DNA from: Paratrimastix pyriformis
Lineage: Eukaryota > Preaxostyla > Paratrimastigidae
DNA: 64,000 nucleotides
Reading direction: 5' to 3'
Assembly (NCBI GenBank): GCA_027972325.1
Contig: JAPMOS010000001.1
Location: 1,025,001 to 1,089,000, forward strand
Each line of letters starts with the position of its first letter. Within the stretch, counting starts at the first letter, position 1. The position numbers were made by a program, and so were the translations under genes. Of the stretch, positions 2,745 through 64,000 are shown piece by piece. The notes under the pieces were generated by a model that saw nothing but the letters and a program-made list of their open reading frames with translations, was not told the DNA's origin and searched no databases.

Positions 2745-5700
2745 ATGATGTGGGTACGAGCGTTCATGGTATTTTTATTCTGTCCGATTGCGTTTGCCAG
2801 CCCATGCTATCTTTCAAACAACGGGACGAATAACCCGTTGTGTTCTTTTCTAGGTCAATCTCCTTTCGTCCTGTGTCCGTAGCAACCCCATCTTACGTAG
2901 AGCCCTGCTCTTCACTCGGTTTTGCGATTCGGGATGTAAAATGCATCGAGATTCATTTTTTGTCAGCTACTTTCAATGTCACCGAATCTGTGCGACTCCC
3001 GGATAACACCCCCTCCCTGACATTGCTTTCGCCCACCAACACCGAGCTGATCTGCCTGGGTGAGAGCCCCTTCAGCCTGTTGAACGTGCCCCCGGGAAGC
3101 CGGCTGGGGCGACTGGCCCTGGCGAACCTGACCGTCTCCGGCTGCGCGTCGCCAAATTCCGGGGCGGTGGTCCACCTCCGACACAACAGCACCAACTCGG
3201 GCTCCCTTGCCGTGGCGATCACCGGCTGCACCTTCGCTCGCTGCACGGCCCCCTGTGGCGGCGCCTGTCTGGACCTGGTCGACCTCGCCGGGGCGCCCGG
3301 CCCACCGATGGCCGATTCCTTGGACGTGTCCATCACGGGGTCGCACTTCGTGGGCTCGCACCTCGAGGACACCACAGACAGTTGCACGGAAGACCTCCCA
3401 CCCTGGGCGACCGTCCCCCAGGGCGGGGCCGCCATCCGGGTGGTGGCCGGGCCGACGGGCCGGCTCAACCTGACGGGCTGCTCCTTCGCGGACATGGAGG
3501 TCCGTGCGCCCGAGCCGTGGGGCGGGGCTCTACTGGTGGACGGCCCCCTGGCCGGCGCCGCCCTGCGTCAGTGTACTTTTACGGGCTGTCGGCTCGTGGC
3601 CACCCTCTCGGGCCGGGGCGGGGCCGTGGCCGTCCGTGGGGCGGCGGCCCTGGAGCTGATCGGGTGCGCCTTCGCCGACGTCTGGATCGAGAGCCCCGCG
3701 GAGGGCTACGGCGGCGCGCTGGCCTTCAGCCCCTCGTCGACCGCCGCATGGGGCCGCCTGGTCAACAGCACCTTCCAGCAGTGCCGCGTGGATGCGGCCG
3801 ACACCGCCCGCGGAGGGGCGCTCTGGGCGTCGGGGCTGCACCGCTTGGAGGTGGCCGGGTCCCTGTTTACGGAGTGCTCCCTGACCGGGGACGCCGGGTC
3901 CGGGGCGGGCCTGGCCCTCTGGGACGCCACCGAGCTGCTCCTCGAGGAGGGGAGCCGCTTCGAGGGCAACCACATCCGGGCCGCCAGCAGCGCCATGGGG
4001 GCCGCCCTGGCCAGCGTCGGGGCCGTCCTGGTGGAGCTGCGGGGCGGGGCCCACTTCAGCCAGAACACCGTGAGCCTGAGCAACTCGGGGGAGGGCGAGG
4101 CCCGGGGGGGCGCGGTGGCCCTTGTGCCGCCCGCCTCGGGGGCCCCGGCCCGGTGCCTCCTGGAGGGGGGCATCTTCGCGGCCAACATGGTCACCGGCCA
4201 CAATGCCCGCGGGGGCGCCCTCCACCTGGCCGATGGCAACGTCCGGCTGGCCATGCGGCGGGTGCAGTGGCACGGCAACCAGGCCAGCACCCCGCTCGCC
4301 CTGGTGGACGACAGCTCGGCCTTTGGCGGGGCCCTGGCCGTGGGCCGGGCCCAGTCCGTGGCGGCCGAGGATTGCACCTTCGCCGGGAACGCGGTCGACT
4401 CGCAGGTCCGCCCGGCCACCCTCCCCTCCCCAGCCACGCCCGCTTCTTCACGCCCGCCTCCCCTGCGCCTGCGCCTGCACCCCCATCGGGCTCGACCTCC
4501 CGCTGACGATCCCACCCAACGCGGCCACCCGCAGGGCCAGGGAGGCGGAGGGGCCGTGCACCTGGAGAAGCTGCAGGGGTCGCTGGACGTGGCCGGGTGC
4601 GCCTTCGTGGGGAACGCCGTCGATGCCCGGGCCACGGCCCAGGTGGCCGAGGGCGGGGCGCTCTACTGCCAGGAGGCCGCCGCGACGGCCATCAACCAGA
4701 CCCAATTCGTCGAGAACAGCCTCACCGGGGCCGGGTTCGCCGTGGGCGGGGCCGCCTCCCTGTCCGCATGGCACTCCATCATCCCCTCCCTCCCCTGCCC
4801 CACCGGCGGCCACCTCACCCATCCACACCCACCCACCCACCTCACCCAACCCACCCACCCGCTCACCCGGGGCCCTCTGCTCTTTCATCGCCGCCATTCT
4901 TCATGGGCCGTGGGCTGCAGGTACAAGGGGACGGCCACCCTGGATGGGGTCACCGTCCGGGGCTCAGTCGTCCGCAGCAAGGCCGCCGCTTGGGGCGGGG
5001 GCCTCTCCTTCCGCTACTGCCTGGCGGTCACCGTCCGGGGGGGCCGCTTCGAGGGCAACAACGTCACCTCGACCACCGACGCGGCCGGGGCGGCGGGCAT
5101 GCTGGCCCTGGAGACGGCCCAGGTGGCCCTCGAGGGGCCCGCCTTCCGGGCCAACACGGCCCAGGGCGCACAGGCCTTCGGGGCCGCCCTCGCCCTCCTG
5201 GGCCTGCAGGCCGTCCAGGTCGCCATGCCCACGCCTGCTGCTGCGCCGCCCCCGCCCCCGCCCACTCACACTCACACTCACACTCACACTCACGCTCGCT
5301 GGCCAGGTGACGGGGGCCGATTTCCAGGGGAACCTCGCCGACGGGCAAACGCTGGCCCAGGGGGGCGTGCTCTACCTGTCCGAGTGCACCGCCCGGGTGG
5401 CCCTGACGGGGTGCGCCATGGCCGCCAACGGGGCCCGGGCCGAGACGGTCGAGGGGGCGGCCCTCTTCCTCAAGCCCAGCGACACGGCCCCGGTGGCCAT
5501 CACCGGCTGCTCCTTCCTCGAGAACGTCGCCATGGCCACCGTCTCCGGCTCGGGCGGTCCGCACCCCAGTCCCGCGCCCCGTCCACGCCCCTCCGCAGCA
5601 GCACCACGCTCCCGCCCCCTTCTCTCGGGCGATGCTGACGGCCCTGCTGGCGTGTCTCGGGGTGGGGTGGCTCTGACGTGGCTGCTTTGTGGGTGGGTGT

Positions 5701-6439
5701 GTCGCCCACCAGGGGCCGTGACGGTGGTCAACGGGGGCGGCCTGGAGGTGCGCGGCTGCCAGGCCAACGGCAACCGGGTCGAGTGCGCCGGCTGCGTGGC
5801 CCGGGGGTCGGCCTTCTTCGTGACCAGCATCGAGGGGGACGTCACCCTCGCCCAGAACGCCTTCGTGGGGTCGGCCTCCCTGGCCGAGGCCATCTTCCAC
5901 GCGGGCGGGTGCCTCTACCTGCGCGCCAACGAGCGGGCCGTGGCCGCCGGGCGCCGCTTCACCCTGGCCAACTGCACCTTCGAGCAGTGCCGCGCCCCCG
6001 ACGGCGGCGCGGTGGCCATCAGCGGGGCCCCGGTGGCGGTCGTGGGGTGCACCTTCAAGGGGTGCATCTCGGAGAAGACCGGGGCGGCCCTCTCCACCGA
6101 CGCCCCCCTGAACCTCACCGAGACGGCCTGCCTGGGCTGCTCGGCCCTCTACGGTCCGCCCCCCTGGCCGCCTGGCCCCCCCAGGGGGCCCGCTCACCCT
6201 CCCTCTCCCATCGGGCGCGGGGGGGCGTTGGGGCTGCAGGGGGCTGCGTCTCGTCGACGAGCGACATCGCCGTCCGGGGCGGCTCCTTCGTGCGCAACGT
6301 GGCCCTGCTGGCGGGGGGCGGCTTCTACGTGCGGGGCGGCTCGCTGCTCATGGACAACGCAACAGCCACCCGCAACACCGTCCGCCGCTGCCCCCCCTGG
6401 GTATCATCACAGCATGGGGGCGTGGGTGGCATGGGGGCG

Positions 6440-6503
<64 letters not shown>

Positions 6504-7002
6504 CACGGGCACGCGGCCCCGTCCGGATCGTGGCTCATCGGGCAGGAGCTCATCCGCTTGCTCGCCACCCTTCCCACCCATCCACCCGCTTGCTCTCGGC
6601 CCCAGGTGGTGCACGGGGAAGGGGGCCTGACGTACGCCTACCGTGCGACGGTCACCCTGCGCGGGTCGCACTTCCAGGAGAACCGGGCCAAGGACGGGGC
6701 CGTGCTCTTCGGGGTCGACAGCCGGGCCCTCAGCCGGGGCTGCGCCTACGAGGGCGGCCAGGCCACCTCGGGCTCGGCGGCCACCATGGACGGGGGCACC
6801 CTCGACTCGGCCGGGGACGCCTTCTGGGCCAATGCGGCCGCCTCGTTCGGGGTGCTCGCCTTCACCCGGGCCGACTTCGTGGTGACCCAGGGCAGCTTCG
6901 AGGCCAACTCGGCCCAGCTGGGCAGCGCCCTCTACGCCTCGCGCGCCTCGGGCTCATTGGAGGCCCGCCCCCCGCACTCACCACACACTCATGCCCCCCC
7001 CC

Positions 7003-7033
<31 letters not shown>

Positions 7034-9026
7034 ACAGACAGACAGGACAGACAGACACAGACAGACAGACTCACTCGTCCACCTTCACCCCCGTCCACCC
7101 CCACCTTCACCACCGCACCGCAGGGCTGCTCCTTCCGCGGCAACCAGGCCGACTCGGGCACGGTCTACATGGGGGCCTCGGCCCTGCTGGTGGGGCGGTG
7201 CCTCTTCGCGGGCAACGTAGCCCTGACCCAGGGCGGGGCCCTGGTGCTGGTCTCGGGCAGCCAGCTGGCCGTCGAGGGGTCCCGCTTCGCCCGCAACAAC
7301 GCCACCGAGGGCGGCGCCGTCTACGCGTGCAACTCCTCCGCCACCACCTTCACGGGGTCCACCTTCCACCGCGTCCGCATGGCCCCCATCAGCCCCCATC
7401 AGCCCCCCCCACCAGCCCCCCATCAGCCTACCAGCCCCTGCCCAGGCACGACCTCCCTCCGGTGCTTTGCTCTGCCATTTCGATAAATGCCCCCCCCCCC
7501 CCCCCCCCCCGTAGAATGCGGCCGAGGACGAGGGCGGGGCCATCCGGTGCCGGGACAACGGGCTGACGGTGGTCGAGGGGTGCCTCTTCGAGGGCAACCG
7601 GGCCTACGAGGGGACGGCCATCCAGGGCGAGGGCGCCTCGGCCCTCGAGCTGGCCGACTGCGCCTTCCGGGACAACCTCAGCCCCCGCCTGACGGCCACC
7701 CAGAGCACCACCGACGCCATGCGGGGCGCCCTGGCCCTGGAGGGGGCCGAGGCCCGGGCGGCCCTGGCCCAGGCCCGCTTCGAGGGCAACCTGGGCGGGG
7801 GCCTGTGCCTCCACGGGGGCGCCACCGCCCGGCTGGGGCCGGGGTGCACCTTCGCGGGCAACCTGCAGGCGGGCAGCAACGGCAGCCGGCCCGCCAACGC
7901 CCACCTGCAGGCCGGCTGCGGGCTGGACATTGCCGACCCCCAGGCCATGACCGACCCCACCCTGGCGGGGGGCAGTCTGTGGGTCTACGCGGCCCAGGGC
8001 TCCCAGGTGACCGTGGGGGGCCTGCCCCAGCCCGAGGGCCCGCACAACTACCTGCCCCAGATGCGGGGCCGCTTCCTGCTGGGCGACGAGGGCGCCACCC
8101 AGGCCGGCCGGGCGGCCTTCGCGGTGCCCCACCTGGACGCCATCGTCGACCTGGCCGACCCGCGGGCCGACGCCCAGTTCGAGGCGACCTGCCTCTTCGC
8201 CACGGCCGGCCGGCCCAACGTCACCATGCCCGCCATGCCCTGGACGGTGCTCGGCCGGCGGTTCCTCCGCTGCGACCTGCTCGACGGGGCCACCCCGCGC
8301 ACGTACACCCTCTTCCTCAGGTCCCCGCCACCCCACCCCACGCCACCCCACCCCACGCCACCCCACGCCACCGCATCTCCCCGGTACACCCTCGGCAGAG
8401 GAGGGAGGAAGGGAGGGATGGGGGGGACGGAGGGACGGAGGGACGGAGGGACGGAGGGACGGAGGGATGGGGGGGGAGAGGGAGAGGAGGAGAAGGAGGG
8501 AGGGAGGAGGAGGACTCGAGGTCACCCGGTGCGGGTGGATGCGTGGGACGGTCGGGTGGACGCGGTGGGGGCTGCAGCAACGACGGGTTCCAGTGGACCC
8601 GCTTCGGGGAGCTGGTCCTCTACGCCGACTACACCTACCTCGTCGTCGCGGGCGGCATCACGGCCGGGGCGGTGGTCCTCTTCGCCCTCGTCCGCACCGC
8701 CCGCCATGCCCGCCCCCCCCTCAGCCCACCATGCCCACCCCCCCAGCCCGCCGCCGCTCCGCCACCGCCACCCATCCAGCCGCGCCGGCCCCACCACCCC
8801 GCCCCGCTCGCGAATCACGCATCATCCCATCGGGCGGGGGCGGTGTCCGGGCCTGGGGGTCGGTGCGGGTGCATGCAGATGGGGCTGATGGTGTTCTGGT
8901 GGTGCCGCTTCGTGGTGCTCCGCCGGCGGACGACCCTCGAGCTGGCCACCTGGCGCTCGCAGGTCGTCACGACGGTCGACTTCGGCTCGCTGCGCATCCT
9001 CGAGTGCGTCCGTCGGCCCACCCGCA

Positions 9027-9062
<36 letters not shown>

Positions 9063-11611
9063 TGCTGCTGCTGCCTGCTGCTGCTGATGCCCCTCGGTCT
9101 GGAGCCCCGCCCAGCGAGCTCATCCGGCCCGTGGCGCCCGCTCCTCGGGGGCTGCCCGCTGGCGCAGATCGGCCACGGGGCCGACTCGGACGTCTTCAAG
9201 GGGCAGCTCAAGGGCACCGGCCTGGTGGCCGTCAAGGTCCCTCGCCCGGCCCCGCCCGGCCCCGCCTGCCCCCGCCCGGCCCCGCCCGGCCCTTGCCCGC
9301 TGGTTGCCAAGGGTTGCAGGAATTCTCATCAGCGGTTGAATGCGGGGCGTGGCGGTGGCGGTGGCGGTGGCGGTGGCGGTGGCGGTGGCGGTGGCGGTGG
9401 CTCTGCAGCGTCTGTACAGCCGCACCGAGCGGGACGACACGGTCGAGGAGCGGGCCCAGTTCGGCCGGGAGATGTCCCTCCTGAAGAACGTCTCCCACCC
9501 CGTCCGTCCCGGCCCCGGCCCCTCCCTCGGCCCCCGCCCTCCTCCGAGCCCCCGCCTGCGACCAGGTCGCCGGACGCGGCGCCACCCCCCTGCCCTGCCC
9601 CCCTGCCTCGCCTCCCATCCGCCCCATCCATCCATCCCCATCCCCCTCTCCCATCCTCCCCATCCTCATCACGCCCCATCCACCGGCAGAACATCGTCCG
9701 GTTCATCGGCGCCACCCATGCCGGCCCGACCCGACCCACCAGTACGGGCCCACGTCCGCCTACCGCCCGCCGCCCCGCCCACCGCCGCCCGCCCACTTCC
9801 ACCCCGCCCACCGCCGCCCCTCTTCCTCCCACCCTCCCGCCCATTGACTGCCCGTCTGCGGGGCCATTCCTGTCCTGACCATTCCTCCATTCTGCTGGCC
9901 GACCCGGGGGCCGACCTGTCCATGTCCCTCCGCGTCCGGATGGCCCTCGAGATCGCACGCGGCCCGCATCCCTCCCCCATCCTCCTGTTCCCCCCCCCCC
10001 CCCCCCATCCTCCGTCTCCCTCCTTGCCATCCTCCTCCTCGCCACGTGCTGACCGAGTGGTGCCGGCTGCCGGCTGGCCTCCCCACCGCAGGGCTGAACT
10101 ACCTGCACTCGCTGGTGCCCCCCATCGCCCATCGGTCCGCCCGGCCCCTCCGGCCCCCTCCCCCAGCATCTCCTTCCGCCCGCCCCCACGGGGTCAGGCC
10201 CGGTGGTCCGCAGGGCGGCTGCCGTCTCAGGCTGCGTCTGGGGCGGGGCGGGGCGGGGCGCGCAGGGACGTCAAGTGCAGCAACATGCTGGTGACGGAGG
10301 ACCTCCACGTCAAGATCGCCGACTTCGGCATCTCCATGCTCCACCAGGGCCGCGGCACCGTCGCCGCGGGCACACCTGGTCCGCTCACCCCGCACTCGCC
10401 TTTGCGCCCGCCTCGCACCCCCCCGCCACCAGCCGGCCGGTGGGTGGGGTGGGAGATGAGCGCCGCGAAGAATCGGCGGCGGCTGTGGCGGCGGCCGCCT
10501 CGTCTCATCGGGGTCTTTGGGGGCGGTGGGGGATGGATGGGGCGGGTTGTTTCGGGCGGGGGTGGTTGGTGGCCCAGCCTACGCGGCCCCCGAGGTGCTC
10601 CTCCTGCGGCCCTCGGGCCTCCCGGCGGACATCTTCTCATACGGGGTCCGCCCTCCGCTCCCCGACCCGTCTCCATCCCCATCCCCGTCTCCATCCCCAT
10701 CCCCGTCTCCGTTTCCGTCTTCTCGTCCGGGATCCGCCAGCTCCCCACCCCGTGCTCTCCATCTGCATCGCCCCGTCTCCCTCCATCTCCAGTTTCATCT
10801 CCGACTTTTGGCTGGCGGGTGTGGATGCTCATGCTCATGCGGGGTGCGGGGGGGGGGGGGGGGGCAGGTCTGCCTGTGGGAGCTGATGACGCGGCAGCCC
10901 CCCTGGCGGGACGTCTCCTCGCTACAGGTCCGCACACGGCGCCCCGGCCGCACCCCCCGCGCGCCTCGCTCCCGCCGCTGTCTTCCAACCGACCGCCCGG
11001 GCGGGGCGGAGGGCAGCGGCCCAGGCCCAAGGGCAAACCACATCCGCAAAAGACACAAACCAAACCCCCAAATGCCAAACGGAACCTCCTTCGACTGACT
11101 CCCTGCACCCCACCGACTGACCGGCCCCATTGGGTCGGGATGGGCTGTGGGTTGGGTTGGGCAGCTGATGCGGGATGTGCCCGCGGGGCGGCGGCTGCCC
11201 CTGCCGCAGGGCGTGCCGGCCGAGGTTGCGCACATCATCACCCGGTGCTTCGTGGAGGACCCCGAGGAGCGCCCCACGGCCGAGGTCATCGTCGAGCACC
11301 TCACCGCCTACCTGCGCCGCCACCCCTACGTGGCCCCCCTCGCGGCCGGCCCCACCGAGGCCCCAGCGGCCTCCCAGCGGCGCCAGCGGCGCCACCCGCC
11401 CGCCACGCCTTCTTCCGCCTCGCCATCGGAGGCCGCCGGGCCGGCGACGCCCTCCTACGTCACCGAGCCGCCGCCCACGACGAGCAGGTCGAGCCGCCCC
11501 TCGCGCCCGCGGGCCCCCAAGCGCCCCAGCAGCCCCGCCCTCGAGCTGCGCTCGGAGCCGCAGGAGCAGCACTCCACGGCCCGGCTGCCCCTCCTCGCCA
11601 ACGCCGAGTGA
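2745..11611 (+). CDS. Receptor-like TKL kinase with parallel beta-helix ectodomain
   Basis: The start at 2745 opens a signal peptide (MMWVRAFMVFLFCPIAFA). About 5.5 kb of exons then encode Gly/Cys-rich right-handed beta-helix repeats (recurring G-C-x-F and N-x-V/G-G-A patterns, pectin-lyase/POMP-like). One membrane helix (about 8630-8910) spans an intron and ends in a basic stop-transfer stretch (LRRR). The kinase domain follows: glycine loop GHGADSDVFKG (about 9170), VAVK lysine (9231), HRDVKCSNML (rebuilt exactly across intron 10135-10265), IADFGISM (about 10320), AYAAPE (10578), DIFSYGVCLWEL, and a C-lobe ending near 11330. A Ser/Pro-rich tail follows and the stop is at 11609-11611. All catalytic residues are present. 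At least 19 introns were placed, mostly starting GTCCGC; the exon edges near 9007-9110 and 9720-9900 are uncertain. The role is inferred: surface sensing with cytoplasmic Ser/Thr or Tyr-like phosphorylation. Confidence 0.85.
6963..7123 (+). repeat. Intron with poly-C, CA and ACAG microsatellites
   Basis: The intron begins GCCCGC, not GT, and ends CAG. It carries a C run near 6997-7018, then (CA)n and (ACAG)n. Joining 6962 to 7124 restores the beta-helix pattern LEGCSFRGNQ. Confidence 0.7.
8321..8577 (+). repeat. Intron tandem repeats (CCACGCCACC and GGGACGGA units)
   Basis: The intron preceding the transmembrane exon of the receptor kinase. It holds CCACGCCACC-type repeats (8328-8372) followed by purine-rich GGGACGGA repeats (8425-8470). 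It begins GTCCCC and ends CAG. Confidence 0.7.
9237..9408 (+). repeat. Intron with GC boxes and a (GGTGGC)n array at its 3' end
   Basis: Splits the kinase domain just after the VAVK lysine. CCCGGCCCCG units (9245-9292) are followed by about nine GGTGGC hexamers (9349-9402) that run up to the acceptor TCTGCAG. The usual pyrimidine tract is replaced by a G-rich array. Confidence 0.75.
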
Positions 11612-48908: not shown

Positions 48909-51900
48909 ATGGGAGGCAGCTGCTGCAAAATTGGGTGTGCTTCATGTGTAGACGCCATGCAGCTCGACCTCTTTCAGCAAGGACTCTCCGAAATCCCGCA
49001 TGGCGTCTACAAGATCAAGTCGCTGCGACTTCTGGCATTGGGGGCAAATAAAATCTCGGAAGTTTCTCCCGATATTCAAAATCTTCACAACCTTCAAACT
49101 CTTTTGCTCTGGTGCAACGAAATTCCTCGCCTTCCCCAAGAATTGGGCCGGCTGACCCAATTAAGACGACTCGACCTCTCGAAAAATCGGCTCGATCGGC
49201 TTCCTGCCACCATTGGAAATTTGGTCTCCCTCGAAAATCTTGATGTCAGTTTTAACCAGGTCTGCCGCGCGAGGCCTCTCGCGCTCATGCAGCTCCCCCC
49301 CCCCCCCCCCCCCACCGCGTGGTGCAGATCACCGAGATCCCGGCCTCCATCGGAGGCTGCAAAAACCTTCGCGAGGTGAACATGAAGCGAAACGCCCTGA
49401 CCGACCTGCCCGAGGGCTTCGGCGACCTGGTGCAGCTGACCGAGCTCAACCTCGAGCAGAACAACATCAACCCCACCCTCGCACGCTTCTTCGATTTCGG
49501 GGACCGGTACTGCGTCCATCTCTGTGCGTTCCTGCGATTCAAGAAGGCCACTCGCCTGCCGGCCCGCTTCGAGCAGCGCCAGGATCGGCAAGGTCCCTCC
49601 GCCCATCCAGTCAGGGGGTCCCCCGCCCATCCACCGCCAGCCAGGGGTCCATCCACAAACTGCTCAGGGGCCCTCCAGCCTGCCAACTATTGGTGGGTCG
49701 TGGCGACTGGCTCGTTCATGCGTCTTGGGTGGGGCAACCCTGGGTGGGGCAACCCTGGGTGGGGACAGCCCGAGTGTACTATGCCGACCACGAGACCCAG
49801 AGCACCAGCTGGATCGACCCGCGGTACTTCATCTTCGTCCGCAACCTGGTCTGCCCCCACTCCTCCAACTCACTCTCGCTCTCTCACTGCCAGCCTCACT
49901 GTCAGCCTCACTGTCAGCCTCACTGTCAGCCTCACTGCCAGCCTCACTGCCAGCCTCACTGCCATTGCCATCCTGACTGCCTCTCATGCAACCCCTTTCC
50001 CGCCACGGGCAGCCATTCCAAGAGCGGAGGAAATTCAGCCTGAACGGCGAGCCCAGCAACCTGTTCGGTCTGCCTTGGGCGGCCTCCTCCTTCGGGACGG
50101 GGGCAGGGTGGGTACCCTCTTCCCCTGCCTGCCTGCGCTCACTCGTTCTCGCTCGCCTGCTCGCTTGACGTCCCTCTTGGTCAGCCTCCGAGGAGCGCGC
50201 CCCAGCGCCGGTCGTGCCGGCCTCGGCCACCTCCGTCACCGCCTCTTCCCCTGACGGAGTCTGCCACTGCGGCGGCCCCACGAAGGTCATTCGGTGGCCC
50301 CACGCCAGCACCCCACGCCAGCACCCCACGCCAGCACCCCACGCCAGCACCCCACGCCAGCACCCCACGCCAGCACCCCACGCCAGCACCCCACGCCAGC
50401 ACCCCACGCCAGCACCCCACGCCAGCACCCCACGCCAGCACCCCACGCCAGCACCCCACGCCAGCACCCCACGCCAGCACCCCACGCCAGCCCGCCCGCA
50501 CGCACACTGATCTCCGTTCTCGCACACACTTGGGCCCAACAGCGAGCCTGCCCGTACCACCTGTGCGCCAAGTGCTGCCGCCACGTCGACTGCCCTCTGC
50601 ACGGCAACCCTGACCTGATGGGCGGAGCCAGCCGTCTGTTGCTGTTGCCACCCCATCCCTCCCTCCAGCCTCCCTCGCGCCGCCCATCCCTGAGTGGACT
50701 CTTCCCGCGGCCCTTTTCCGCTGCTTCTGCTGGACTTACCCCTGGCGGCTCCGTGCCTGTGGCCGTGTGGGGGCCGCACACACTGTTTTGGGGTCCAGTG
50801 CGCTCCTTCACCACCCGGACGGAGGCCTTGCGACAACAGCTGAAGGCGCTCCACCTGCCCGAGCCCGAGACCTGGAAGGACAAGCCCAGGTTACGGCTCA
50901 GCCTCAAGCGGACCGAGCTCTTCGAGAACAGCTTCCGCGACGTCATGCGCGCCAACACCGAGCGCCTCAAACTCCGGTCTGGCCCCCGCCCGCGCACCAG
51001 CCGTTCCCCGGGGCCGCCCCATGGTGGCGCACCCCGCGTCGCCTACTCACCCTCCTCCCCCGGCTGTCGGCCCGCAGGCTGCAGGTGATCTTCCAGGGCG
51101 AGGAGGGCCTCGACTATGGCGGCCTCACCCGCGAGTGGTTCACGGTCCGTCCATCCGTCCATTCATCGTTCGGCCCTCCCTGCCTTCTCTTCCCTGTTGC
51201 GACGCCTTCACGCCCCATACCCGTGGGTGACGTTTCGTCATGACGGTGCGGGGGGCTGCCTGTCGGGGAGGGCAGCTGGTCTCGAAGGAGATCACCAACC
51301 CCAACTACGCCCTGTTCACGGTCAGCCAGGTGGACGACTACACCTTCCGCATCAACCCGCTCTCTTCCATCAACCCCGAGCATCTGCAGTACTTCCGGTC
51401 GGTCCTCGCCACCCCGTGTCGCCCAGCCCGCTCCCCACACCCCGTGCCGCCGGGCCCTCTCACCACCGCCTGGTGCCGCTGCCCTCGGTGGCTCTTGCGG
51501 GGTGGTATGGCAGCTTTGTGGGCCGGGTACTGGGCAAGGCCCTCTTCGATGGGTTCTTCATCAGCTGCTACTTCACGCCCGTCTTCTACAAGCGCCTCCT
51601 CGGGTCTGTCCCCTGCTCCTCCTGTGCCCGCTCTCCTCTGTGCCCGCTCCTCCTCCTCTGTGCCCGCTCCTCCTCCTCTGTGCCCGCTCTCCTCTGTGCC
51701 CGCTCCTCTGTACCCTCTCCTCTGCCCCCCCCCCCCCCCCCCCCCCCCCCGGCCCCGAGTGCCATTTACGAGGGCGGCGGCGTGGGGTTCTGGTCTGGCA
51801 GGCTGCCCGTCTCGCTGACGGACATGGAGGCCATCGACCCGGAGTACTACCGGTCGCTCAAGTGGATCCTGGAGAACGACATCACAGACACGGTCGAGCT

Positions 51901-52699
51901 GGCCTTCACCACGGAGGTCTGCGCCCTCCCCTCACCCCTCCCTGTGCACCCCATCTCGCGTACCCCGCACACCCGCGCCCTCGCCCGTCAAGGCCATCAC
52001 CTGTCATTTTGGGATGCGCTGCGGGCGTGGGTGACCCTTCTCTGGGCGGCCACCAGTTGGAGGAGTTCGGCACGACCCGGGTCATCGAGCTGAAGCCCGA
52101 CGGGGCCCAGATCCCCGTCACCGAGGAGAACAAGGGTCCGCCCTCGCCCCCCACTCCTTCATCCCCCAGTTCCCCCCCCCCCCCCCCCCCCCCTCCGTGG
52201 CCGGCGGCTCATGGTGGTTGATCGGGGGGCGGGCGGCCTGGGCTGCAGCGGAGTACGTGGACCTGCTGACGGACCACCTGCTCAGTCGGGGCACCCGCGA
52301 ACAGATGGACGCCATCGTGCGGGGCTTCCACGACCTCATCCCCCACGACCTGGTGCGCTCGTTCAACTCGGCCGAGCTCGAGCTGCTCCTCTGCGGTCCG
52401 CCCCTCCGCCGGACAGCTCCCCCTGGCCTGCCGCCCGACCTCGGAGCGCCCCCTTCACTTCGACCCGCTTGCCGCGCGGGGGGCCTGGGCGCAGGGGTCC
52501 ACTCGATCGACGTGCAGGACTGGAAGGCCAACACCGAGTACCGCTACTACACCCCCTCCACCCCGGCCGTGCAGTTCTTCTGGCAGGCCGTCGAGCGGAT
52601 GACCAACGACCAGCGGGCCAAGATGGTCCAGTTCGTGACGGGCACCTCCAAGATCCCCCCGGGCGGTCCGGACGCACAGCCTGCTCCCCTCCTCCCCCC

Positions 52700-52732
<33 letters not shown>

Positions 52733-53162
52733 ATCCTCACCCCAGGCCTGGTGAACCATGTGCCATTGTGCCTCACACCCATTCCGTTCTGTTCTGCTGT
52801 GCCGATGGCGGGTGCGGGTGCGGGGTGCGGGCGTTCGGGGGCAGGCTTCTCTTTCCTGGTGGGGAGCTCGGGGCCGCGGCGCTTCCAGATCTGCAAGGCG
52901 CACAAGTCGCCCGAGCACCTGCCCGTCGCCCACACCTGCTTCAACCAGCTCGACCTCCCCGGTCCGCCCCCCGCCCATCCCGAGCGCCGGCCCCTCCGCC
53001 CTTGGCACGTCACTCCTGACTGACCCGGGGTTCGGATGGGGGGATGCTTGGCGGCCCGTGCGCCCCCGGCTGCTGCCCGCAGAGTACCGCAGCCTCGAGG
53101 AGACCGAGGAGCGCCTGCAGGCCGTGCTCGAGTACGGCCTGACGGGCTTCGGGGAGAAGTAG
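48909..53162 (+). CDS. LRR-WW-HECT ubiquitin ligase with N-terminal acylation signal
   Basis: The protein starts MGGSCCKIGC, a strong dual myristoylation/palmitoylation signal. Six or so leucine-rich repeats of the 23-residue type follow (LRLLALGANKISEV, LQTLLLWCNEIPRLP, LRRLDLSKNRLDRLP, LENLDVSFNQITEIP, LREVNMKRNALTDLP; 49020-49480). A WW domain is rebuilt across a GTCCCT intron (LPARFEQRQDRQ-ARVYYADHE and TSWIDPR; 49555-49825), with Phe in place of the first Trp. A Cys/His-rich segment (VCHCGGPTK then RACPYHLCAKCC, DCPLH) comes next. The NEDD4-like HECT domain runs from about 50860: GLDYGGLTREWF, ITNPNYALF, FVGRVLGKALFDG, EYYRSLKWILEND, ELELLLCG, VQFVTGTSKIP, and the catalytic PVAHTCFNQLDLP (about 52930). 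Stop at 53160-53162. Introns begin GTCTGC, GTCCCT, GTCATT, GTCTGG and GTCCG. Confidence 0.9.
50290..50495 (+). repeat. 13-bp (CCCCACGCCAGCA)n minisatellite
   Basis: About fifteen near-identical 13-bp units inside the HECT-gene intron that separates the two parts of the Cys/His-rich motif. The intron begins GTCATT at about 50287 and ends CAACAG at about 50541. Confidence 0.85.
51600..51760 (+). repeat. CTCCTCTGTGCCCG repeats and poly-C in HECT intron
   Basis: Imperfect copies of a CTCCTCTGTGCCCG unit are followed by a run of about 26 C residues (51725-51750) before the exon LPVSLTDMEA. Confidence 0.75.
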
Positions 53163-53465: not shown

Positions 53466-54135
53466 TCAAGCGAGGGGATTGGCGTGGATGGTGACGCGCT
53501 CGATCCAAATTTCTTGCAGGGGCCTGTCCTGGTCGTCGCAGGGGACTCGCTCCAGGGCGTCCAACGTTTCCCAGCCCGAGAGAACCCTAGGGGACGAAGA
53601 TCAGAGGGGCCAGCGAGGGTGGACAACAAACTTTCCAATGATGGTGTGAAGACCGTCGAGGTGGGCTTGCTTCGAATAAGTAATGAAAAACTGGCTTCCT
53701 GCAGAAAGGGTCAGCCACAGGAGCAGGGCGCGATTCGAGTCAGACGATTCGTGTGGGGTCCGCTGTTGGCCATCGCCACGACGCCTCGTGTGTTAAACTA
53801 GGAAAATGCGTGTGAACTCAGAAATACGCATTTCAATTGCGCCGAACCTTCAAAATGTCAACGATCTCGTCGTCGAATTTGCCACCCCAGATACTCGTGC
53901 CTCCGCGTCCGGTCCCTGTTGGGTCGCCGCCCTGAATCATAAAGTCTCTTCTGTTCCGATGGAATTTCGTGTTGTCATAGTAGCCGGCCGCACAAAGCGC
54001 AATGAAATTCTGTCGTCGTTGATGGAAATAGTGAGTACATGCGATCGTACTTCAAACCTCGGCGCTTTTTGGGACAAGATCACAGAAGATTTCTAATTTA
54101 ATATCCCCATAGTTCGTGTGCAGAGTGAGCGACAT
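53466..54135 (-). CDS. PPIL3: Cyclophilin PPIL3, peptidyl-prolyl cis-trans isomerase
   Basis: The start at 54135 gives [19 protein letters not shown], then [89 protein letters not shown] and the C-terminal [10 protein letters not shown] with IHANPLA. The cyclophilin catalytic Arg (FHR...FMIQGGD) and the QFFIT and MAN motifs are intact, and length and ending match PPIL3, a spliceosome-associated cyclophilin. Four short introns begin GTTTGA, GTTCGG, GTCTGA and GTTTGT, so this moderate-GC gene keeps pyrimidines at +3/+4 and G at +5. The stop is at 53466-53468. Confidence 0.93.
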
Positions 54136-55205: not shown

Positions 55206-56436
<1,231 letters not shown>

Positions 56437-56750
56437 GTTATCGGGTGGGTTTGATCTCTTGTTGTCTTCGTATCTTTCCGGTTCTCTTTCTCTCTCTTTC
56501 TCCCACTCTCCGCTTGCGTTTGGTCCTTCTTCGTTCTTTTTGGGGAGTCGTTCTGTAAACACATCCCGACGAAAAGGGACCATTAATGAAAGAAGATAAT
56601 CTTGGCGAGTTCAAAGAGTGTTCCCAAGAATGTCCTCCGCGATTTCTTCTGAGTCCAGAAACCCTCTGGATAGATGCGCCCAATTTTGGGGTATAATTTG
56701 TTTTCCCTGTGGGCATTGCCGGCTTCTTCCCCCACCGCAAAGACTGACCG
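56437..56750. other. Spacer between PCNA and Deltex-type gene
   Basis: Contains a CT-rich stretch (56475-56515) and AT-rich sequence; presumably the PCNA 3' UTR and the promoter of the next gene. No RNA gene was recognised. Confidence 0.45.
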
Positions 56751-57813: not shown

Positions 57814-57999
57814 TTTGTTGTTTATTGCGGCTCCTTTCTCTCTTTTTTTATATTTGTTTGGGGAAAACATTTTGAAAGAAAAGGTTCTCAAAAACGCAAG
57901 CGAGGAGAGGGTTGATCAGACCGGCAAGGGTGGGATTCTTCAAAATGACAACAGTCATCTCTAAAACCAGGGGTTCTTGAGCCGCGGCGAAATGGTTGG

Positions 58000-60900
58000 T
58001 TTTCTGCAATCCAAATTGATGGAGTGTTTTTTTTTCTTCCGATTTTGGCATGCCTCATCTAGCAATTTGCTTCGAAATTCGTCGATGTGGACGAGAGTGA
58101 AAACGTCCAAGAAGTCGCAGATGAAGATGTTGAGGAAGGACTGTTCAGCCGTGCCACAAAAGCGGCCAGCTCACTCTTGAGGGAAGAAGATCGTCAGAAT
58201 TTGGTCCAGCAACAGCAGCCTCAACCGTTGGCGACTCGTTCCGCCGCCCCACGCTCCGCCCCACGCTCCGCTGCTCACCGCGTGGAGGCTGCTGGGACGA
58301 ACGTGGTCGCCCTTCAGCTCTCGCAGCTGGCTAACGATGCAGTTGTGCACACCGGTGAATGCATTTTCTGCCGACAATGCGGCGCCGCCTTTAGCGGTCT
58401 CAGGTCCGGCTTCAAATGTCCTTCACATCGGCCTAGCATCACCATCCAGCCGTCTGGTGGCTGCCGCTCCTGCCCCGGCGGCCACGGCCACGGCTGGTCC
58501 GGCTGCCCCACCCGCTCCTGGGGGGTCCGAGATCTGGACATGCGAGTTCTGCGGGACGCCCAACCCGATCAACCTGGACGAGGAGGAGCGGCCCCACGAG
58601 GACACCGTCGACTACCTGCTCGAGCCCGCCCCGGTGGCGGCCCCCGCGGATATGCACGACAGCTTGCTGGTCTTCGTCATCGATGTCCGTCGCTCCTTGA
58701 CGTGCCGGTGGTTGCCTTGTGCGGCTGGCTGGGCATGGTGGGAGGGCGGTCGGCGGTCGGGCGGTCGGGCGGTCGGGTGGTGTCAGCACCGGCGGGTCGT
58801 TCGGCGGCACGTCATCCCCTCTCGCCCCTGTTCGCCCCCAACGCGCACCGCCGCAGACGAGCGGCTCGATGGGCGTCACCAGCGAGTACAACGGGGTCCT
58901 CCAGCTCAAGGGCGCCGCAGCCGCCAAGTCCGCCCCCGACCCGACCCGCCTCGCCTCCCCTACTCCAGTCGCCTCGCCCCGCCTCCCCTCGCCCCATCCT
59001 CCCCTCGCCCCCTCCTCCCCTCGCCCCCTCCCCTCGCCCCTCGCCCCTCGCCCCTCGCCCCTCGCCCCTCGCCTTGCCTGTCCGACCCCTCGCTCACTGC
59101 CATGGCTGGCCCCGCCTGTGTACGGGCGTGTGCGTGGGCTGGCAGGTTGAAGGAGCTCCAGCGGACCCTGGGCGAGGGCATGGCCCAGTACCTGCCCCGC
59201 CAGGCCCGCCACGTGACGTACATCTCCCGGCTGCAGGCCGTCCAGGCATCCATCGACGGGCAGCTGGAGGCCCTCGCCAAGACCTCGCCAAACACCCGCG
59301 TGGCCCTGGGTCCGCCGGTCGCAACGGCCCCTCCTCCGGCCCAGCCTCCTGCCCATCCCCCGAGCCCTCCCAGGGGCCCCCGGGGCCTCTTGGAGGCTGT
59401 GCTCACCGCTCGGCTGCACGGTGTGGGTGGCGCAGTGGCCTTCAACAGCGAGGTGGTCATCTACGGGGACGGCCAGGGGGCCCCCCGGACGGTTGCCGGC
59501 GACCGGTTGTCGAACTACGAGCAGCTCTACCAGCAGGGCGTCGAGGCGGCCCGGGGCAGGACCATCGTCGAGGCCCGCAAGGAGCTCGTGGCCCGCCTCT
59601 GGGAGCTCGAGGAGAACGGCCCGTCTCGCACCCGTCTCGCGCACGCCCTCCCGCCCGCCTCCTCCCGCCCGCCTCCTCCCGTCCGGTGTGCCCGTTGGGC
59701 GGAGAGGCTGCCGCTTGACGGGATGCTGGGCGTCCGGATGGGGGCGGCGCAGGCCAGACGGCCCTGGGTCCGGCCCTGTCGGTGGCCCTGGGGATGGCCT
59801 CCCAGACGCCCGCCTCGAAGATCATCCTCTGCACGGACGGCCTGGCCAACGTGGGGGTGGGCGCCCTCGACGGGCTCCTCAGCGATGCCCTCGCCCAGGA
59901 GCGGGAGCGCTTCTACACCAACTGCGGCGAGGTGGCCCGCACCAACGGCACCACCGTCTCCCTGATCAGGTCCGACCCCCCTGGCCCCGACCCCTCGCCT
60001 CGGCCCGTCTTCCCCTCCGCCACCTTGGGCCGCTTACACCCGAGGGCCCCCCCCCCCCCCTCCCCGGAGATACAGGCGCATCGGGGTGGCCATGGGGGGG
60101 GGGGAGGAGGGGGAGGAGGAGGGGAGGAGGGGAGGAGGAGGAGACAGAGCGAAGTGAGAGAAACGGGGAAAGGGCGGCAGCGCTGCCAACCCCCCCCCCC
60201 CCCCCCTCCCCGGGCCCCCGCCTGCAGCCTGACGGGGACCGAGTGCCGCCTGGAGAACCTGGGGGCCGTGGCGGAGGCCACCCACGGGGAGGTCAGCCGG
60301 ATCGACCCGCTCCAGCTGGGCGCCAACGTGGCCAACATCCTGGACAACCCCATCCTGGCCACCAACGTCCAGATCAAGTCGGCCCCTGCCCTGCCCTGGC
60401 CCCCCATGTACCCACGGCAGCCCCTCGGCTCCGTCTCATGCCCTTCGTGGTCGGTTCGGTTTGGCGGGCGGGCGGGTGGCGGGCGTGGGGCGTGCAGGAT
60501 GCTGCTCCACCGGGGGCTCAAGTTCAACAACGAGGACGACGCCCACGAGGGCCTCCTCACCCGCGACGTGGGCAACGTCCAGGTCCGCCACCCCATGCCC
60601 GGCGCCCGCCATGCCCTGCGCCCGCCATGCCCTGCGCCCGCCATGCCCCCATGCCCCCACCTGCCTCCCTCCCTGGCGGCGTCGGCCTGACTCTGGCCGT
60701 TCTTTGGCTCTCCCCTCCCTCGGGCCCTCGGCCCCTCGGGCCCAGGCCGACTCAGCGATCACCTTCGAGTTCAGCCGGCGGCCCGGCTGGGTGCCCCCCG
60801 CGGACCTTGTGGCGCTGCCCTTCCAGACGCAGATCCGCTTCACCCGGCGCACCGGGGCCAAGTTCATCCGGGTGCAGACCCTCGCCCAGCCCATCACCCG

Positions 60901-62052
60901 CGAGCGCGCCCTGGCCGAGCAGGAGGTCCGCGCCCGGCCGCCCGTCCCTGCCCCCCCCCCCCCCCCCCCCCCCCCCACTGGGCGGGCCCCCCCGGGCCCC
61001 GGAGGCTCACGACGGCTCTGACATCTTCTGCGCGACACGCTCGCTCCACACATCTGGCCGGCAGGCGGACGTTGCGGTGCTGTCGATGAACAGCGTCCAG
61101 CAGGCCGCCCGGGCCGCCCAGAAGGGCGACTACATGCGGGGCCGGCTGATCAACTACGCGGCGGCCGACCTGATGCAGCGCCACGCGGCCAAGAAGAGCC
61201 CCGGCACCATCACGGGCGACCAGCAGGCCGCATACGCCCACTGGGTCCAGACCACAAGCGTCCGGCCGCTCACCCGCCGCCCACACGCCCACACGCGCCA
61301 CCACCCACACGCCACCCCATCCAAATCGCCCCACTGCCTCCTTCGGGATCGGGGGCGTCACTGTCGCCATGCTCAACGTCATCATGGGGTGCCGGGGCGG
61401 CAGGCTTTCGACGAGCGGCTGCATCAGGAGCAGGCCATCGAACGGGCCACCGTCAACCGCGACCTCGACGCCGAGGCGCCCGCGGTCTGGTGGCTCCCTC
61501 CGCCTCCCGCCTCCCGCCTCCCGCCTCCCGCCCTCGCCCTCGCCCTCGCCCTCGCCCTTGCCCGGTTTCTGACGGTCTGCTGGTGGCTGGTGCTGGGCGG
61601 GGCACACAGGCCGAGCGGGCGAAGACCCGCAAGGCGCGGCGGAGCGACGAGACGGCCCAGATGCTCTTCTCGGTCGGCCCCCACCTCGCTGCTCGCTGCT
61701 CCCTCCGCCCATCCCGTCCTGGCCCCGCCCGCCCCTCGGTGCTCCCTGCTCCCATCCTGACGGACCCTCTTCGTTTCCGCTCCGCCCGGCCGCCTGTGCG
61801 CCTCCCCAGATGCGCCAGCACAGCCCGGCCGTCTTCAAGCTGGCGGCGCGCCCCCCACCGCCGACCGTGCCCGCGTCCGCGCCCCCGGCCACGGGGATGC
61901 CGGGGATGCCGGGGCTGGGCATCTCGACCGGCATGCCCCTGCCGCCCCCGCCCCCGCCTCTCGCACCCTCGGCCTCCCAGCAGAAGCAGGCGCCCGGCTC
62001 GATGATGCCGCCCCCGCCCCCGCCCCCGCCCCCAGCCCCCAAGCGCTCGTAA
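58000..62052 (+). CDS. Sec23/24-like vWA protein of the CpRas1 type
   Basis: The first secure exon starts at 58063 (acceptor TCTAG); the true start codon, probably near 57990-58020, was not fixed. Two zinc-binding CxxC pairs (CIFCRQCG and WTCEFCGTPNP; 58365-58565) precede a vWA domain: LLVFVIDTSGSMG with a complete DxSxS MIDAS (rebuilt across a GTCCGT intron, 58686-58856), RLQAVQASIDGQL, VALVAFNSEVVIYGDG, GQTALGPALSVALGM, KIILCTDGLANVG, and TECRLENLG (58655-60260). A beta-sandwich-like part (ITFEF, TQIRF) and a helical part with MQRHAA come next, then a Pro-rich tail to the stop at 62050-62052. Dictyostelium CpRas1 and related protist proteins share this zinc-plus-vWA layout; the circularly permuted Ras part is not seen here. 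Introns begin GTCCG, GTCGG, GTCTG, and one GCCCGT (59619). The role, possibly membrane-trafficking or signalling related, is unknown. Confidence 0.75.
60045..60205 (+). repeat. Poly-C, purine-rich and poly-C blocks in vWA-gene intron
   Basis: C runs at about 60048-60061 and 60190-60207 flank a G/A-rich stretch (60093-60160). The intron runs from GTCCGA (about 59970) to CTGCAG (about 60229). Confidence 0.8.
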
Positions 62053-62183
62053 GGGGCCGTCCCGCCCCGGTGGGCTGGTTGGTGGTGTACAGCCAATGTA
62101 GTTTCGCGTCTTCAACAAGACTTGTGTACGGTGTGCCGCTGGCTGGCTGGAGGGGAAGGGTGGGGGGAGAGGGGGGGGGCCGG

Positions 62184-64000
62184 TCACCCGACGGGGAAGC
62201 AGCGCAGGGTGTGGTCGGCCCCGCCCACGGCCAGCCAGCAGGGCTCCCGCTCCCCCTGGGGGGCCAGCCCCGGGGCGAAGAAGGCCATGCAGCTGACGGC
62301 CTCGCTGGGCCGGCACGGGGCAGCCCTGGCCGGAAGACCAACCGTGAGCGGGTCCCGAGGCCAGCCACCACAACCACCCCTCATCAGGCACATGCCCCCC
62401 ACACACACACACACACCCCTTGGGTCGGAGGGGAGAGGCGGAGGGAGCTGCAGACTGGGGCGGCATGTCCAGCTCGGCCACGCGCACCGGGGGGGCCGCA
62501 TGGGCCGCCGCCTGGTCGCCCTCCTCCGCGGGGGTCGGGTCCACCGCGCATCGGCGCAGGACGACCTCCCCGCTGGCCAGCCCGATGGCCAGCAGGCAGC
62601 AGCCCTCGCCCGCCTCGGTCGCGGCCATGCCGGTGGCCATCCCCGGGGCCACCAGGGAGGGCCGCACCGCCCCCGGGTCGGGCGTGGAGCCCTGGGGGGG
62701 CAGCAGAGCCACGGACAGCAGCCGGGGCGGGTTGGTGAGGGGCGTGCGGAGGGCGGGCTGCTCGAAGGGGCTCGGGGCGCTCAGGGCGGCCGCCTGGTGG
62801 GGGGCCATCGCGGGCCCGCCCTCGGCGAGGGCCTCGGCCGCGGGGGCGGTCGGTACCAGCCGGGTGGGCAGCCGGAAGAAGAAGACCTCCCCCCGACACG
62901 TGGCCGCCGCCAGGACCAGGTGGCCCGCCCGGGCCGGGAAGGGCAGCCAGGCCAGGGCCGTGACGGGGTCCGGCAGGCCCACCGCGTGGAGGATGGTCGC
63001 TGTGCCGCCCCAGGCGCGGCCGTTCCAGTCCCAGGGGGCCGGATGAGAGGTGGGCAGGATGCAGGATGGGGCTGCTGATCGCGGGCTGAGGTCTGGGCCG
63101 GGCAGACCCTTGTCCGCGGCCCGTTCGGCCTCGCCGCTGCGGCGTTCGATGAGGAGCATGCAGAGGCGCCCCTCGCCCCCGCCCGTCGCCAGAATAGTGC
63201 CCGCTGCGGGGCCACAGGCCCCTGCAGCAGCCGTCCATGCGAGGGCATCAGTCGCGGGCAAGGGCAACCCACCGAGAGCCGGGTGGCGGATGGGGCTTTC
63301 GGGCGGGGGAGGGAGGATCCGGGTGAGCGGACCGTCAGTCGGGCGGGCGAGGATGACGTCGTGCGGGGCGAAGGCCATGCAGCTGACGGTGGCCTCGTGG
63401 AGGCGCTCGAGGATGAGCCTGGGCCAGGTGGCCCCCACCCGCCACACCGAGACCACCCCGCCCTTGCTGCACGTGCTCAGCGACCCCGAGCTCACGTAGA
63501 GCCCGTTGGGCGAGGCCGCCACCGCGGTCGCCTCGGTCGGGGGGCCGTACCTGCACAGGTCGGGCGTGTGCGTGTATGCGTGCGTCTGTGGTGGACGGGG
63601 GAGCGGGGGAGCGGGGGAGCGGGGGAGCGGGGGAGCGGGGGAGCGGGGAGCGGGGAGCGGGGGAGCGGGGAGCGGGGAGCGGGGAGCGGGGAGCGGGGAG
63701 CGGGGAGCGGGGAGCGGGGAGCGGGGAGCGGGGGAGCGGGGGAGTGGGGAGCACAGACAGCTGGCGGATCTCGGGCCAGACGGTGCGCTCCATGAGGGTC
63801 TCTTCGGTCGGGGCCCAATGGCCCTCCTCCTCCCCGGTATCGGCCTCCTCGTCGGGCCGTGGCGGCGGCATGTTGGCCGGCGACAGGGGCATGTAGGTGC
63901 GGGGGCAGGTCCTGCGTGAAGAGGTACGCCCCTGCGGCGGGTGGGCGTGTGGGCGTGCGGGCGTGACGTCGGACGTGGGGCCGGGTCTGGCAGGTGGGCG
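62184..64000 (-). CDS. ELP2: ELP2, WD-repeat subunit of Elongator (5' end beyond window)
   Basis: The visible exons match the second half of ELP2: PTEETLMERTVWPEIRQL-YG (63815-63760, then 63548), AVAASPNGLYVSSGS, VVSVWRVGATWP, LHEATVSCMAFAPHDVIL (63540-63349), ILATGGGEGRLCMLL (about 63190), ALAWLPFPARAGHLVLAAATCRGEVFFF (62960-62880), and the C-terminal AVGGADHTLRCFPVG with a stop at 62184-62186. Elongator modifies wobble uridines of tRNA; ELP2 scaffolds with ELP1 and ELP3. The phrase TEETLMERTVWPEIRQLYG is specific to ELP2. Introns start GTCTGT (about 63760) and GCCCGC (63348). The part encoding the first beta-propeller lies to the right of the window. Confidence 0.88.
63595..63755 (-). repeat. 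GGGGGAGC/GGGGAGC array in ELP2 intron
   Basis: About twenty units of 7-8 bp, read on the coding strand as C-rich GCTCCCC(C), in the intron between EIRQL and YGPP. Confidence 0.85.

What the first reader, a model, noticed from the sequence alone, without database searches (positions are those of the whole stretch)
2745..64000. Non-canonical 5' splice sites: GTCCGC / GTYYG instead of GTRAGT
Where homology fixes the exon ends, introns begin GTCCGC again and again: + strand 4406, 4762, 5557, 6154, 6380, 7373, 8690, 10135, 10379, 10646, 10928, 55870; minus strand 1458; with GTCCGT at 9502 and 57399. In AT-richer genes the same positions read GTCTGN or GTTTGN (21505, 55376, 55674, 56146, 57136, 57532, PPIL3). 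The shared rule is pyrimidine at +3 and +4 with G at +5. Only one canonical GTAAGT was seen (55511). Joining at these points rebuilds HRDVKCSN in the kinase, DTSGSMG in the vWA and the WECVACTYRNP zinc finger exactly. Classical U1 (CUUAC) pairs with GUAAG; these donors would need CRRAC.
Basis: partly seen in the sequence, partly recalled or inferred. Interest (0 to 1): 0.88.

Follow-up and report, generated by a model that had tools for sequence, protein, structure and literature searches.

The report
Rewritten intron start signal, matching U1
This protist starts most of the introns we could check with GTCYGY-like signals instead of the usual GTRAGT, and all eight U1 RNA genes found in its genome carry matching changes, so a signal long treated as almost fixed across eukaryotes seems to have been rewritten on both sides.

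Summary
All 22 donors with coordinates read as stated. Protein homology fixed 48 introns in eight conserved genes, using only the GT-AG rule: +5 is G in 48/48, +3 is C in 38 and T in 9, +4 a pyrimidine in 42, +6 in 40. GTYYG occurs in 42/48, against 11% of other GTs in predicted introns; GTRAG in 1/48 (PCNA, 55511). A gene finder trained on the DNA alone converges on AG|GTCYGY, even when started from GTRAGT. Two searches find the same eight U1 genes; all begin AUACAGACC instead of AUACUUACC. G6 pairs with +3C and C4 with +5G. A5 and A3 face +4 and +6, where C and T follow intron composition, so pairing there is loose. U1 1-7 now equals the U6 heptamer AUACAGA. METTL16 and SNRNP27K, whose loss is linked to +4 switches in yeasts, are retained. 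The open-access papers searched gave no natural precedent. RNA data are lacking.

The parts
50977..53082 (+). HECT domain of a ubiquitin ligase gene: nine introns at 50977-51077, 51145-51275, 51398-51513, 51604-51801, 51917-52056, 52136-52248, 52396-52494, 52666-52844, 52962-53082; donors GTCTGG, GTCCGT, GTCGGT, GTCTGT, GTCTGC, GTCCGC, GTCCGC, GTCCGG, GTCCGC
   Evidence: Spliced alignment to a profile of 119 homologues and, separately, to P0121, a 364-aa uninterrupted protein 87% identical; only GT-AG demanded
53469..54135 (-). PPIL3-like cyclophilin gene: donors at 54057 (GTTTGA), 53847 (GTTCGG), 53745 (GTCTGA), 53631 (GTTTGT)
   Evidence: Spliced alignment to human PPIL3 recalled from memory, score 507
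55376..56244 (+). PCNA gene: introns 55376-55419 (GTTTGG), 55511-55559 (GTAAGT, the one canonical donor), 55674-55716 (GTCTGT), 55870-55966 (GTCCGC), 56146-56244 (GTCTGT)
   Evidence: Spliced alignment to human PCNA recalled from memory, score 661; the first intron (55215, GTTGTC, next to a 3-residue exon) was dropped
9502..11164 (+). Kinase part of the repeat/kinase gene: donors at 9502 (GTCCGT), 10135, 10379, 10646, 10928 (all GTCCGC); splicing 10135-10265 gives HRDVKCSNM and 10379-10577 gives GTPAYAAPE
   Evidence: Read from the sequence; HMM introns (9502 and 10928 only with the learned donor model); kinase motifs recalled, no alignment made
4406..8878 (+). Repeat part of the same gene: donors 4406, 4762, 5557, 6154, 6380, 7373, 8690, all GTCCGC, all seven reproduced with a flat donor model
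2765..11611 (+).
   Evidence: for the exons; domain reading by eye, no family search made on it

Best explanation
The major spliceosome of this organism uses a rewritten 5' splice-site code, AG|GTCYGY, and its U1 snRNA has changed with it. Two substitutions at U1 positions 5 and 6 (UU to AG, in all eight genes found) turn the recognition sequence ACUUACC into ACAGACC. U1 then reads the donor with C9/C8/A7 on -1G/+1G/+2U (as in canonical U1), new G6 on +3C (G-U when +3 is T), new A5 facing +4 pyrimidine, C4 on the invariant +5G, and A3 facing +6 pyrimidine. After hand-off, U6 (ACAGAGA box unchanged) meets the same donor bases with the same letters, because U1 1-7 and U6 39-45 (human numbering) are both AUACAGA; +3C can pair with U6 G44. 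Shown: donor sequences, U1 and U6 gene sequences, no canonical U1 gene in the searches made, retention of PRP8, U1C, METTL16, SNRNP27K, U2, U5. Inferred: that these U1 genes are transcribed from the A of AUAC, that the pairing occurs in the cell, and that donors and U1 changed together.
For: Donors fixed by homology with no donor model beyond GT-AG: 48 introns, GTYYG 42, GTRAG 1, +5G 48/48. With no splice-site rule at all, the alignment still places all 18 PRP8 introns (plus two end artefacts), and the GT-AG register is a score tie in 16 of 18. Self-training gene finder: 572 introns from a flat start (347 GTYYG, 2 GTRAG) and 580 from a canonical start (351, 2) reach nearly the same matrix. Eight U1 genes, all AUACAGACC, each with an upstream TCCCATAA element that also stands before the U12 candidate, the two U5 genes read (of seven) and three of four U6 genes. 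Of the 16 dinucleotides possible at U1 5-6, the observed AG ranks 2nd in mean duplex energy with 43 donors (-6.96 kcal/mol; GG -9.84; UU -2.94) and 2nd also in the HMM set. +3 is C far beyond intron composition, which suits G6.
Against: No RNA evidence for splicing or for the U1 5' end. GG would pair better than AG, and with positions 3-6 all free ACAG ranks only 14th of 256 (24th in the HMM set; canonical ACUU 89th and 143rd). C, the commonest base at +4 (22/48), mispairs with A5. C:T at +4 and +6 follows intron C:T in GC quartiles, so A5 and A3 do not visibly select for T. Six of 48 donors break the GTYYG rule. The U1 search scored 41 of 992 first-look candidates, so a very divergent further U1 is not excluded. 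I cannot show the order of events or that U1, rather than U6, imposes the rule.
Confidence: 0.88

Rival explanations
1. U6 drives the donor code: the donors are simply the best complement of the unchanged U6 ACAGA box, U1 matters little (as suggested for Entamoeba with GUUUGU donors), and the U1 change is secondary or neutral.
For: Donor TCTGT is the exact complement of U6 ACAGA; U6 is unchanged in four of four genes found. A review says Entamoeba has GUUUGU donors and no known U1 and suggests U6 complementarity may substitute (PMC6018208, passages).
Against: U1 is present in eight near-identical copies with both changes in the predicted positions, and the U1 body and U1C are conserved, which argues that U1 still reads donors. 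The two views are compatible: U6 may have set the direction and U1 followed.
Confidence: 0.3
2. Base composition: a GC-rich genome drives ordinary donors towards GTCCGC with no change of recognition.
For: The scanned DNA is 66-68% GC; C:T at +4 and +6 follows intron composition.
Against: GC pressure does not favour C over G, yet +3 is G in 0 of 48 although G follows GT most often in the scanned DNA (42%). AT-richer genes keep GTCTG/GTTTG. +7 and +8 show only C-rich background. U1 changed in the matching positions.
Confidence: 0.04
3. The introns are not U1-dependent spliceosomal introns, or are minor (U12-type) introns.
For: A U12-like gene exists (C432, 44.9 bits, below the Rfam cut-off), so a minor spliceosome is likely.
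Against: U12-type donors (recalled: RTATCCTT) do not match any of the 48; acceptors are CAG-rich (548 CAG of 656 predicted); U1, U2, U5, U6, PRP8 and U1C of the major spliceosome are present.
Confidence: 0.02
4. Donors at +4 and +6 are read through modified adenines: U1 A5 and A3 carry a modification (inosine, or protonated A.C pairs) that lets them pair with C and U alike.
For: C and T are used at +4 and +6 in proportion to background, unlike what a plain A-U pair would select, and inosine would pair with both.
Against: No RNA data; simple exclusion of purine-purine clashes gives the same pattern; +6 C is (recalled) common in other GC-rich genomes with ordinary U1.
Confidence: 0.05

Closest known systems
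Yeast +4A to +4U donor switches linked to loss of METTL16 and SNRNP27K (PMC10581693, passages read)
   Same: Large lineage-wide change of donor base preference at +4; the same authors name U1 position 5 changing to A as a possible compensation
   Different: There U1 ACUUACC was invariant in every genome where U1 was found, and METTL16/SNRNP27K are lost; here U1 is changed, METTL16 and SNRNP27K (including the M141 equivalent) are kept, and +3 changes too
Entamoeba histolytica GUUUGU donors (PMC6018208, passages read)
   Same: Pyrimidines at +3/+4 and G at +5 in most introns
   Different: No U1 snRNA has been recognised in Entamoeba; here U1 is found and complementary. Predicts a missed Entamoeba U1 beginning AUACARACC
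Giardia U1 (PMC3510501) and larvacean Fritillaria U1 (PMC13326754), passages read
   Same: Unusual donors in divergent lineages
   Different: Both keep the canonical U1 5' end (1ACUUAC6 in Giardia; strict preservation reported in Fritillaria)
Diplonemid S. specki second U1 with a C stretch (PMC12621601, passages read)
   Same: A U1 gene with altered 5' end
   Different: There it coexists with a canonical U1; here all eight copies found are altered and no canonical one was found
Laboratory U1 suppressors with compensatory 5'-end mutations (recalled classical experiments, no call)
   Same: Same logic, U1 5' end changed to restore pairing
   Different: Engineered for single sites; here it is natural and seen across the genes sampled

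Membership tests
Major (U2-type) spliceosomal introns | GT-AG termini | tested here: met
   In the 48 counted introns, sliding both ends together by up to 18 bases gives either no other GT-AG register or one at least 15 half-bits worse; GT-AG was imposed, but the rule-free alignment ties with it in 16 of 18 PRP8, 6 of 9 HECT, 5 of 6 dyskerin and 3 of 4 PPIL3 introns
Major (U2-type) spliceosomal introns | donor +3..+6 RAGT complementary to canonical U1 ACUUAC | tested here: not met
   GTRAG 1 of 48; mean duplex energy with canonical U1 -3.05 against -6.96 kcal/mol with the genome's own U1 (43 donors)
Major (U2-type) spliceosomal introns | U1, U2, U5, U6 snRNAs and PRP8 present | tested here: met
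   U6 ACAGAGA intact in 4 of 4, U5 loop CGCCUUUUAC in the 2 of 7 genes read, U2 GUAGUA in the 1 of 10 matches read; U4 not searched
U1 snRNA (RF00003) | full-length match to the covariance model | tested here: met
   1-166 of 166 in 8 of 8, 50.8-60.2 bits, best E 3.7e-13; all below Rfam's curated 69.5 bits
U1 snRNA (RF00003) | 5' end AUACUUACC | tested here: not met
   AUACAGACC in 8 of 8 genes
+4 switch by loss of U6 m6A machinery | METTL16 and SNRNP27K lost | tested here: not met
   METTL16 orthologue with NPPF motif, E 1.8e-27 to the PDB chain 6gfk_A named U6 snRNA A43 methyltransferase; SNRNP27K with YRQYMNRKG kept; actual m6A not testable
U12-type introns | RTATCCTT donor (recalled) | tested here: not met
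   0 of 48 donors

The most novel reading that the evidence does not exclude
The spliceosome of this lineage has collapsed two 5' splice-site codes into one. U1 has taken on the U6 ACAGA-box sequence, so that U1 and U6 read the same five donor bases with identical letters in the same register, replacing the usual hand-off between two different pairings. The whole genome's donors were rewritten to the U6 complement, perhaps with modified U1 adenines accepting C and U alike.
Probability: 0.4. Interest if true: 0.93.

Novelty: new variant of a known kind. Interest (0 to 1): 0.87.

Why it matters
The U1 5' end is held to be close to fixed in eukaryotes; the papers read report it unchanged in yeasts with switched donors, in a larvacean and in Giardia. 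A natural, paired change of U1 and donors in an intron-rich genome would show that the first recognition step of splicing can be rewritten, give a test system for how U1 and U6 pairing trade off during hand-off, and suggest that organisms said to lack U1 (Entamoeba) may have one that searches for the canonical end miss. Practically, gene finders assuming GTRAGT would misannotate this genome.

Tried and rejected
Composition alone (rejected: +3 is G in 0 of 48). Loss of METTL16/SNRNP27K as the cause of the +4 change (rejected: both retained). U1C seemed missing after a Pfam and a protein search returned only a WBP4-like zinc finger on C86 (WBP4 by recall); a degenerate pattern then found it on C68, split by introns. 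Strong T preference at +4 expected from A5 was looked for and not found. Branch-point motif: no TACTAAC-like signal, CTCAC/CTGAC only weakly placed. Compensation between +4 purines and other donor positions in the HMM set: -2A is commoner (50% v 29%) but +6T is rarer (20% v 35%), so no clear picture. Organism: the best named dyskerin hits (120 shown of 6961) are mostly early-branching fungi and plants at 62-72% identity, with no near-identical named species; identity left open. Papers PMC3033335 and PMC3488318 (passages) gave nothing on altered U1.

Rows dropped before the count of 48, twelve in all: five HECT-profile introns in the non-homologous N-terminal part (GTGAGT, GTGTGC, GTGCAA, GTACTG, GTCAGC); the first PCNA intron next to a 3-residue exon (GTTGTC); one uL22 intron near the C-terminal end of the alignment (GTAAAG) and one uL22 donor seen only by the HMM (GTCTGT); all four METTL16 introns (GTCTGC, GTCCAA, GTGGCG, GTCGGT), two of which border a poorly conserved stretch. 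With all twelve put back it is 44 of 60 GTYYG and 2 of 60 GTRAG (dropped rows recounted). The 43-donor set still held the HMM-only uL22 donor and lacked the two U1C and four PPIL3 donors. The rule-free alignments also gave introns of no meaning: two at the ends of PRP8, one past the end of dyskerin and seven in the HECT N-terminus; one dyskerin intron came out 3 bases different.
Full report
The window lies in a 56.06 Mb eukaryotic assembly of 495 contigs (C1:1025001-1089000). It is GC-rich (68% in the window) and intron-rich: 18 introns were found in PRP8 alone.

Observation. To test whether they are donors at all, I wrote a gene finder (coding, intron and intergenic states on both strands) that learns from the DNA itself, and ran it on the window plus 200 kb of contig C24. 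Started with no donor preference beyond GT it settled on 572 introns, 347 GTYYG and 2 GTRAG; started with a canonical GTRAGT matrix it settled on 580, 351 and 2, with nearly the same matrix. Self-training can drift towards common words (the GTYYG count was still rising at the last round), so these frequencies are supportive only. With the donor model set back to GT alone and the other parts kept as learned, 349 of 656 predicted introns (window, C24, PRP8 and 15 small loci; short predicted genes left out) are GTYYG and 3 GTRAG, against 8.4% and 2.1% of all GTs.

Homology-fixed donors. The independent test is a spliced protein-to-DNA aligner of my own with no donor or acceptor preference beyond GT and AG. 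I used profiles of 120 dyskerin, 119 of 120 HECT and 21 of 120 PRP8 homologues and single references for PCNA, uL22, SNRNP27K, U1C and PPIL3. Results: PRP8 18, HECT 9, dyskerin 6, PCNA 5, PPIL3 4, SNRNP27K 2, uL22 2, U1C 2, in all 48. Counts: +3 C38 T9 A1; +4 C22 T20 G3 A3; +5 G48; +6 T25 C15 G6 A2; -1 G38. Spellings: GTCCGC 9, GTCTGT 8, GTCCGT 8, GTCTGC 5, GTTCGT 3, GTCTGG 2, GTTTGT 2, and one each of eleven others including GTAAGT. When the aligner is given no splice rule at all, it recovers all 18 PRP8 introns, and the GT-AG register ties with the free optimum in 16; in the HECT domain it ties in 6 of 9 and otherwise costs 4 to 7 half-bits; in dyskerin it ties in 5 of 6; in PPIL3 in 3 of 4. 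It also adds meaningless introns at poorly conserved ends. The nine HECT introns are also fixed by P0121, a 364-residue uninterrupted protein from an environmental source that is 87% identical over 95% of the query, presumably a transcript or annotated gene of a relative. Twelve further introns were dropped before the count; with them it would be 44 of 60 GTYYG and 2 of 60 GTRAG.

U1. The Rfam U1 model finds eight genes, each matched over its full 166 positions (50.8-60.2 bits, below the curated cut-off of 69.5; 41 of 992 first-look candidates were scored). A search for the stem-loop I core with up to three mismatches finds the same eight and no more, all without mismatch. All eight begin AUACAGACCUUGC. 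The canonical sequence is AUACUUACC, so positions 5 and 6 are changed UU to AG. A canonical U1 should score higher with the same model, and none appeared. Each gene carries the element TCCCATAA about 60 bases upstream, also found at three of four U6, the two U5 genes read of seven, and the U12 candidate, so these look like real snRNA genes. U6 (4 genes) has the ordinary AUACAGAGA; U5 loop I (2 read) and the U2 branch-site region GUAGUA (1 read) are ordinary.

Fit. Mean fixed-register duplex energy with 43 donors is -6.96 kcal/mol for AG at positions 5-6, second of 16 (GG is first, -9.84), and -2.94 for UU in the same background; over all 256 sequences at positions 3-6, ACAG is 14th and ACUU 89th. 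The fit is strong at +3 (C-G6) and +5 (G-C4) and loose at +4 and +6. Among HMM introns with +5G, in quartiles of intron GC, the C share among pyrimidines at +4 (0.48, 0.59, 0.76, 0.80) and +6 (0.49, 0.56, 0.71, 0.83) follows that of the intron itself (0.52, 0.66, 0.73, 0.80), while +3 stays at 0.81-1.00. So A5 and A3 seem to demand a pyrimidine but not U. The simplest reading is that purines clash there and C versus T is left to mutation; modified adenines are a bolder one.

U6. U1 1-7 and U6 39-45 (human numbering) are now the same heptamer AUACAGA, so the donor meets the same bases before and after hand-off. The canonical sequences already share five of these seven positions, so the match rests on the two changed bases, a 1-in-15 coincidence if any other pair were equally likely; I do not lean on it statistically.

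Machinery. METTL16 (E 1.8e-27 to 6gfk_A, named U6 snRNA A43 methyltransferase, NPPF kept) and SNRNP27K (M141 equivalent kept) are retained. The known yeast route to a +4 change, loss of these two (PMC10581693, passages), therefore does not apply. U1C is present (C68), and the two introns seen in its zinc finger start GTCTGT and GTTTGT.

Known work. U1 was found in 227 of 230 yeast genomes and ACUUACC was invariant in them; the authors name U1 position 5 becoming A as a hypothetical compensation (PMC10581693, passages). Giardia keeps 1ACUUAC6 (PMC3510501, passages). Fritillaria keeps the 5' end strictly although its abstract speaks of 95% of introns escaping the GT/AG rule (PMC13326754, abstract start and passages). 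One diplonemid has a second U1 with a C stretch beside a normal one (PMC12621601, passages). Entamoeba has GUUUGU donors and no known U1 (PMC6018208, passages). Parker et al. 2025 (PMC11732430, two sections whole and the first part of a third) gives the pairing geometry used here. That no natural U1/donor pair of this kind is in print rests only on ten searches of an open-access library; subscription papers and preprint servers were not searched.

Judgement. Donor rewriting: shown as far as DNA can, in the genes sampled. U1 change: shown in the genes. Coupling of the two: strongly implied by position. Mechanism in the cell and order of events: inferred.

Noticed in passing
G000 C432:103343-103517 (L048): A U12-like snRNA gene (AUGAGUAAGGAAAAU, 44.9 bits, below cut-off) with the shared snRNA promoter element: a minor spliceosome is probably present beside the rewritten major one.
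   Followed up: partly
L001-L008, U1 position 11 and loop I: U1 also has U instead of G at position 11 (facing exon -3) and loop I reads GAUCACACAG, unlike the Rfam consensus GAUCAaGAAG; the copy in L008 has CAGAAUG where the others have CAUAAUG next to the presumed Sm site.
   Followed up: no
L001-L012, L048, L050, L051: TCCCATAA about 60-70 bases upstream of the U1, U12, both read U5 and three of four U6 genes, i.e. shared by genes usually (recalled) made by different polymerases.
   Followed up: partly
window 2765-11611: A single predicted gene joining a long repeat region (beta-helix-like by eye) to protein kinase motifs.
   Followed up: no
window 48956-53162: Predicted gene with leucine-rich repeats (Pfam), a WW-like stretch by eye and a HECT domain; LRR-HECT proteins are listed for Monocercomonoides and Blattamonas.
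   Followed up: partly
G000 C86:24809-24943 (L049): WBP4-like zinc finger protein (by recall), the only hit of the Pfam U1-type zinc finger model; the U1C gene is on C68 and split by introns.
   Followed up: yes
P0121: Environmental 364-residue protein 87% identical to the window's HECT domain: a close relative exists in public data.
   Followed up: partly
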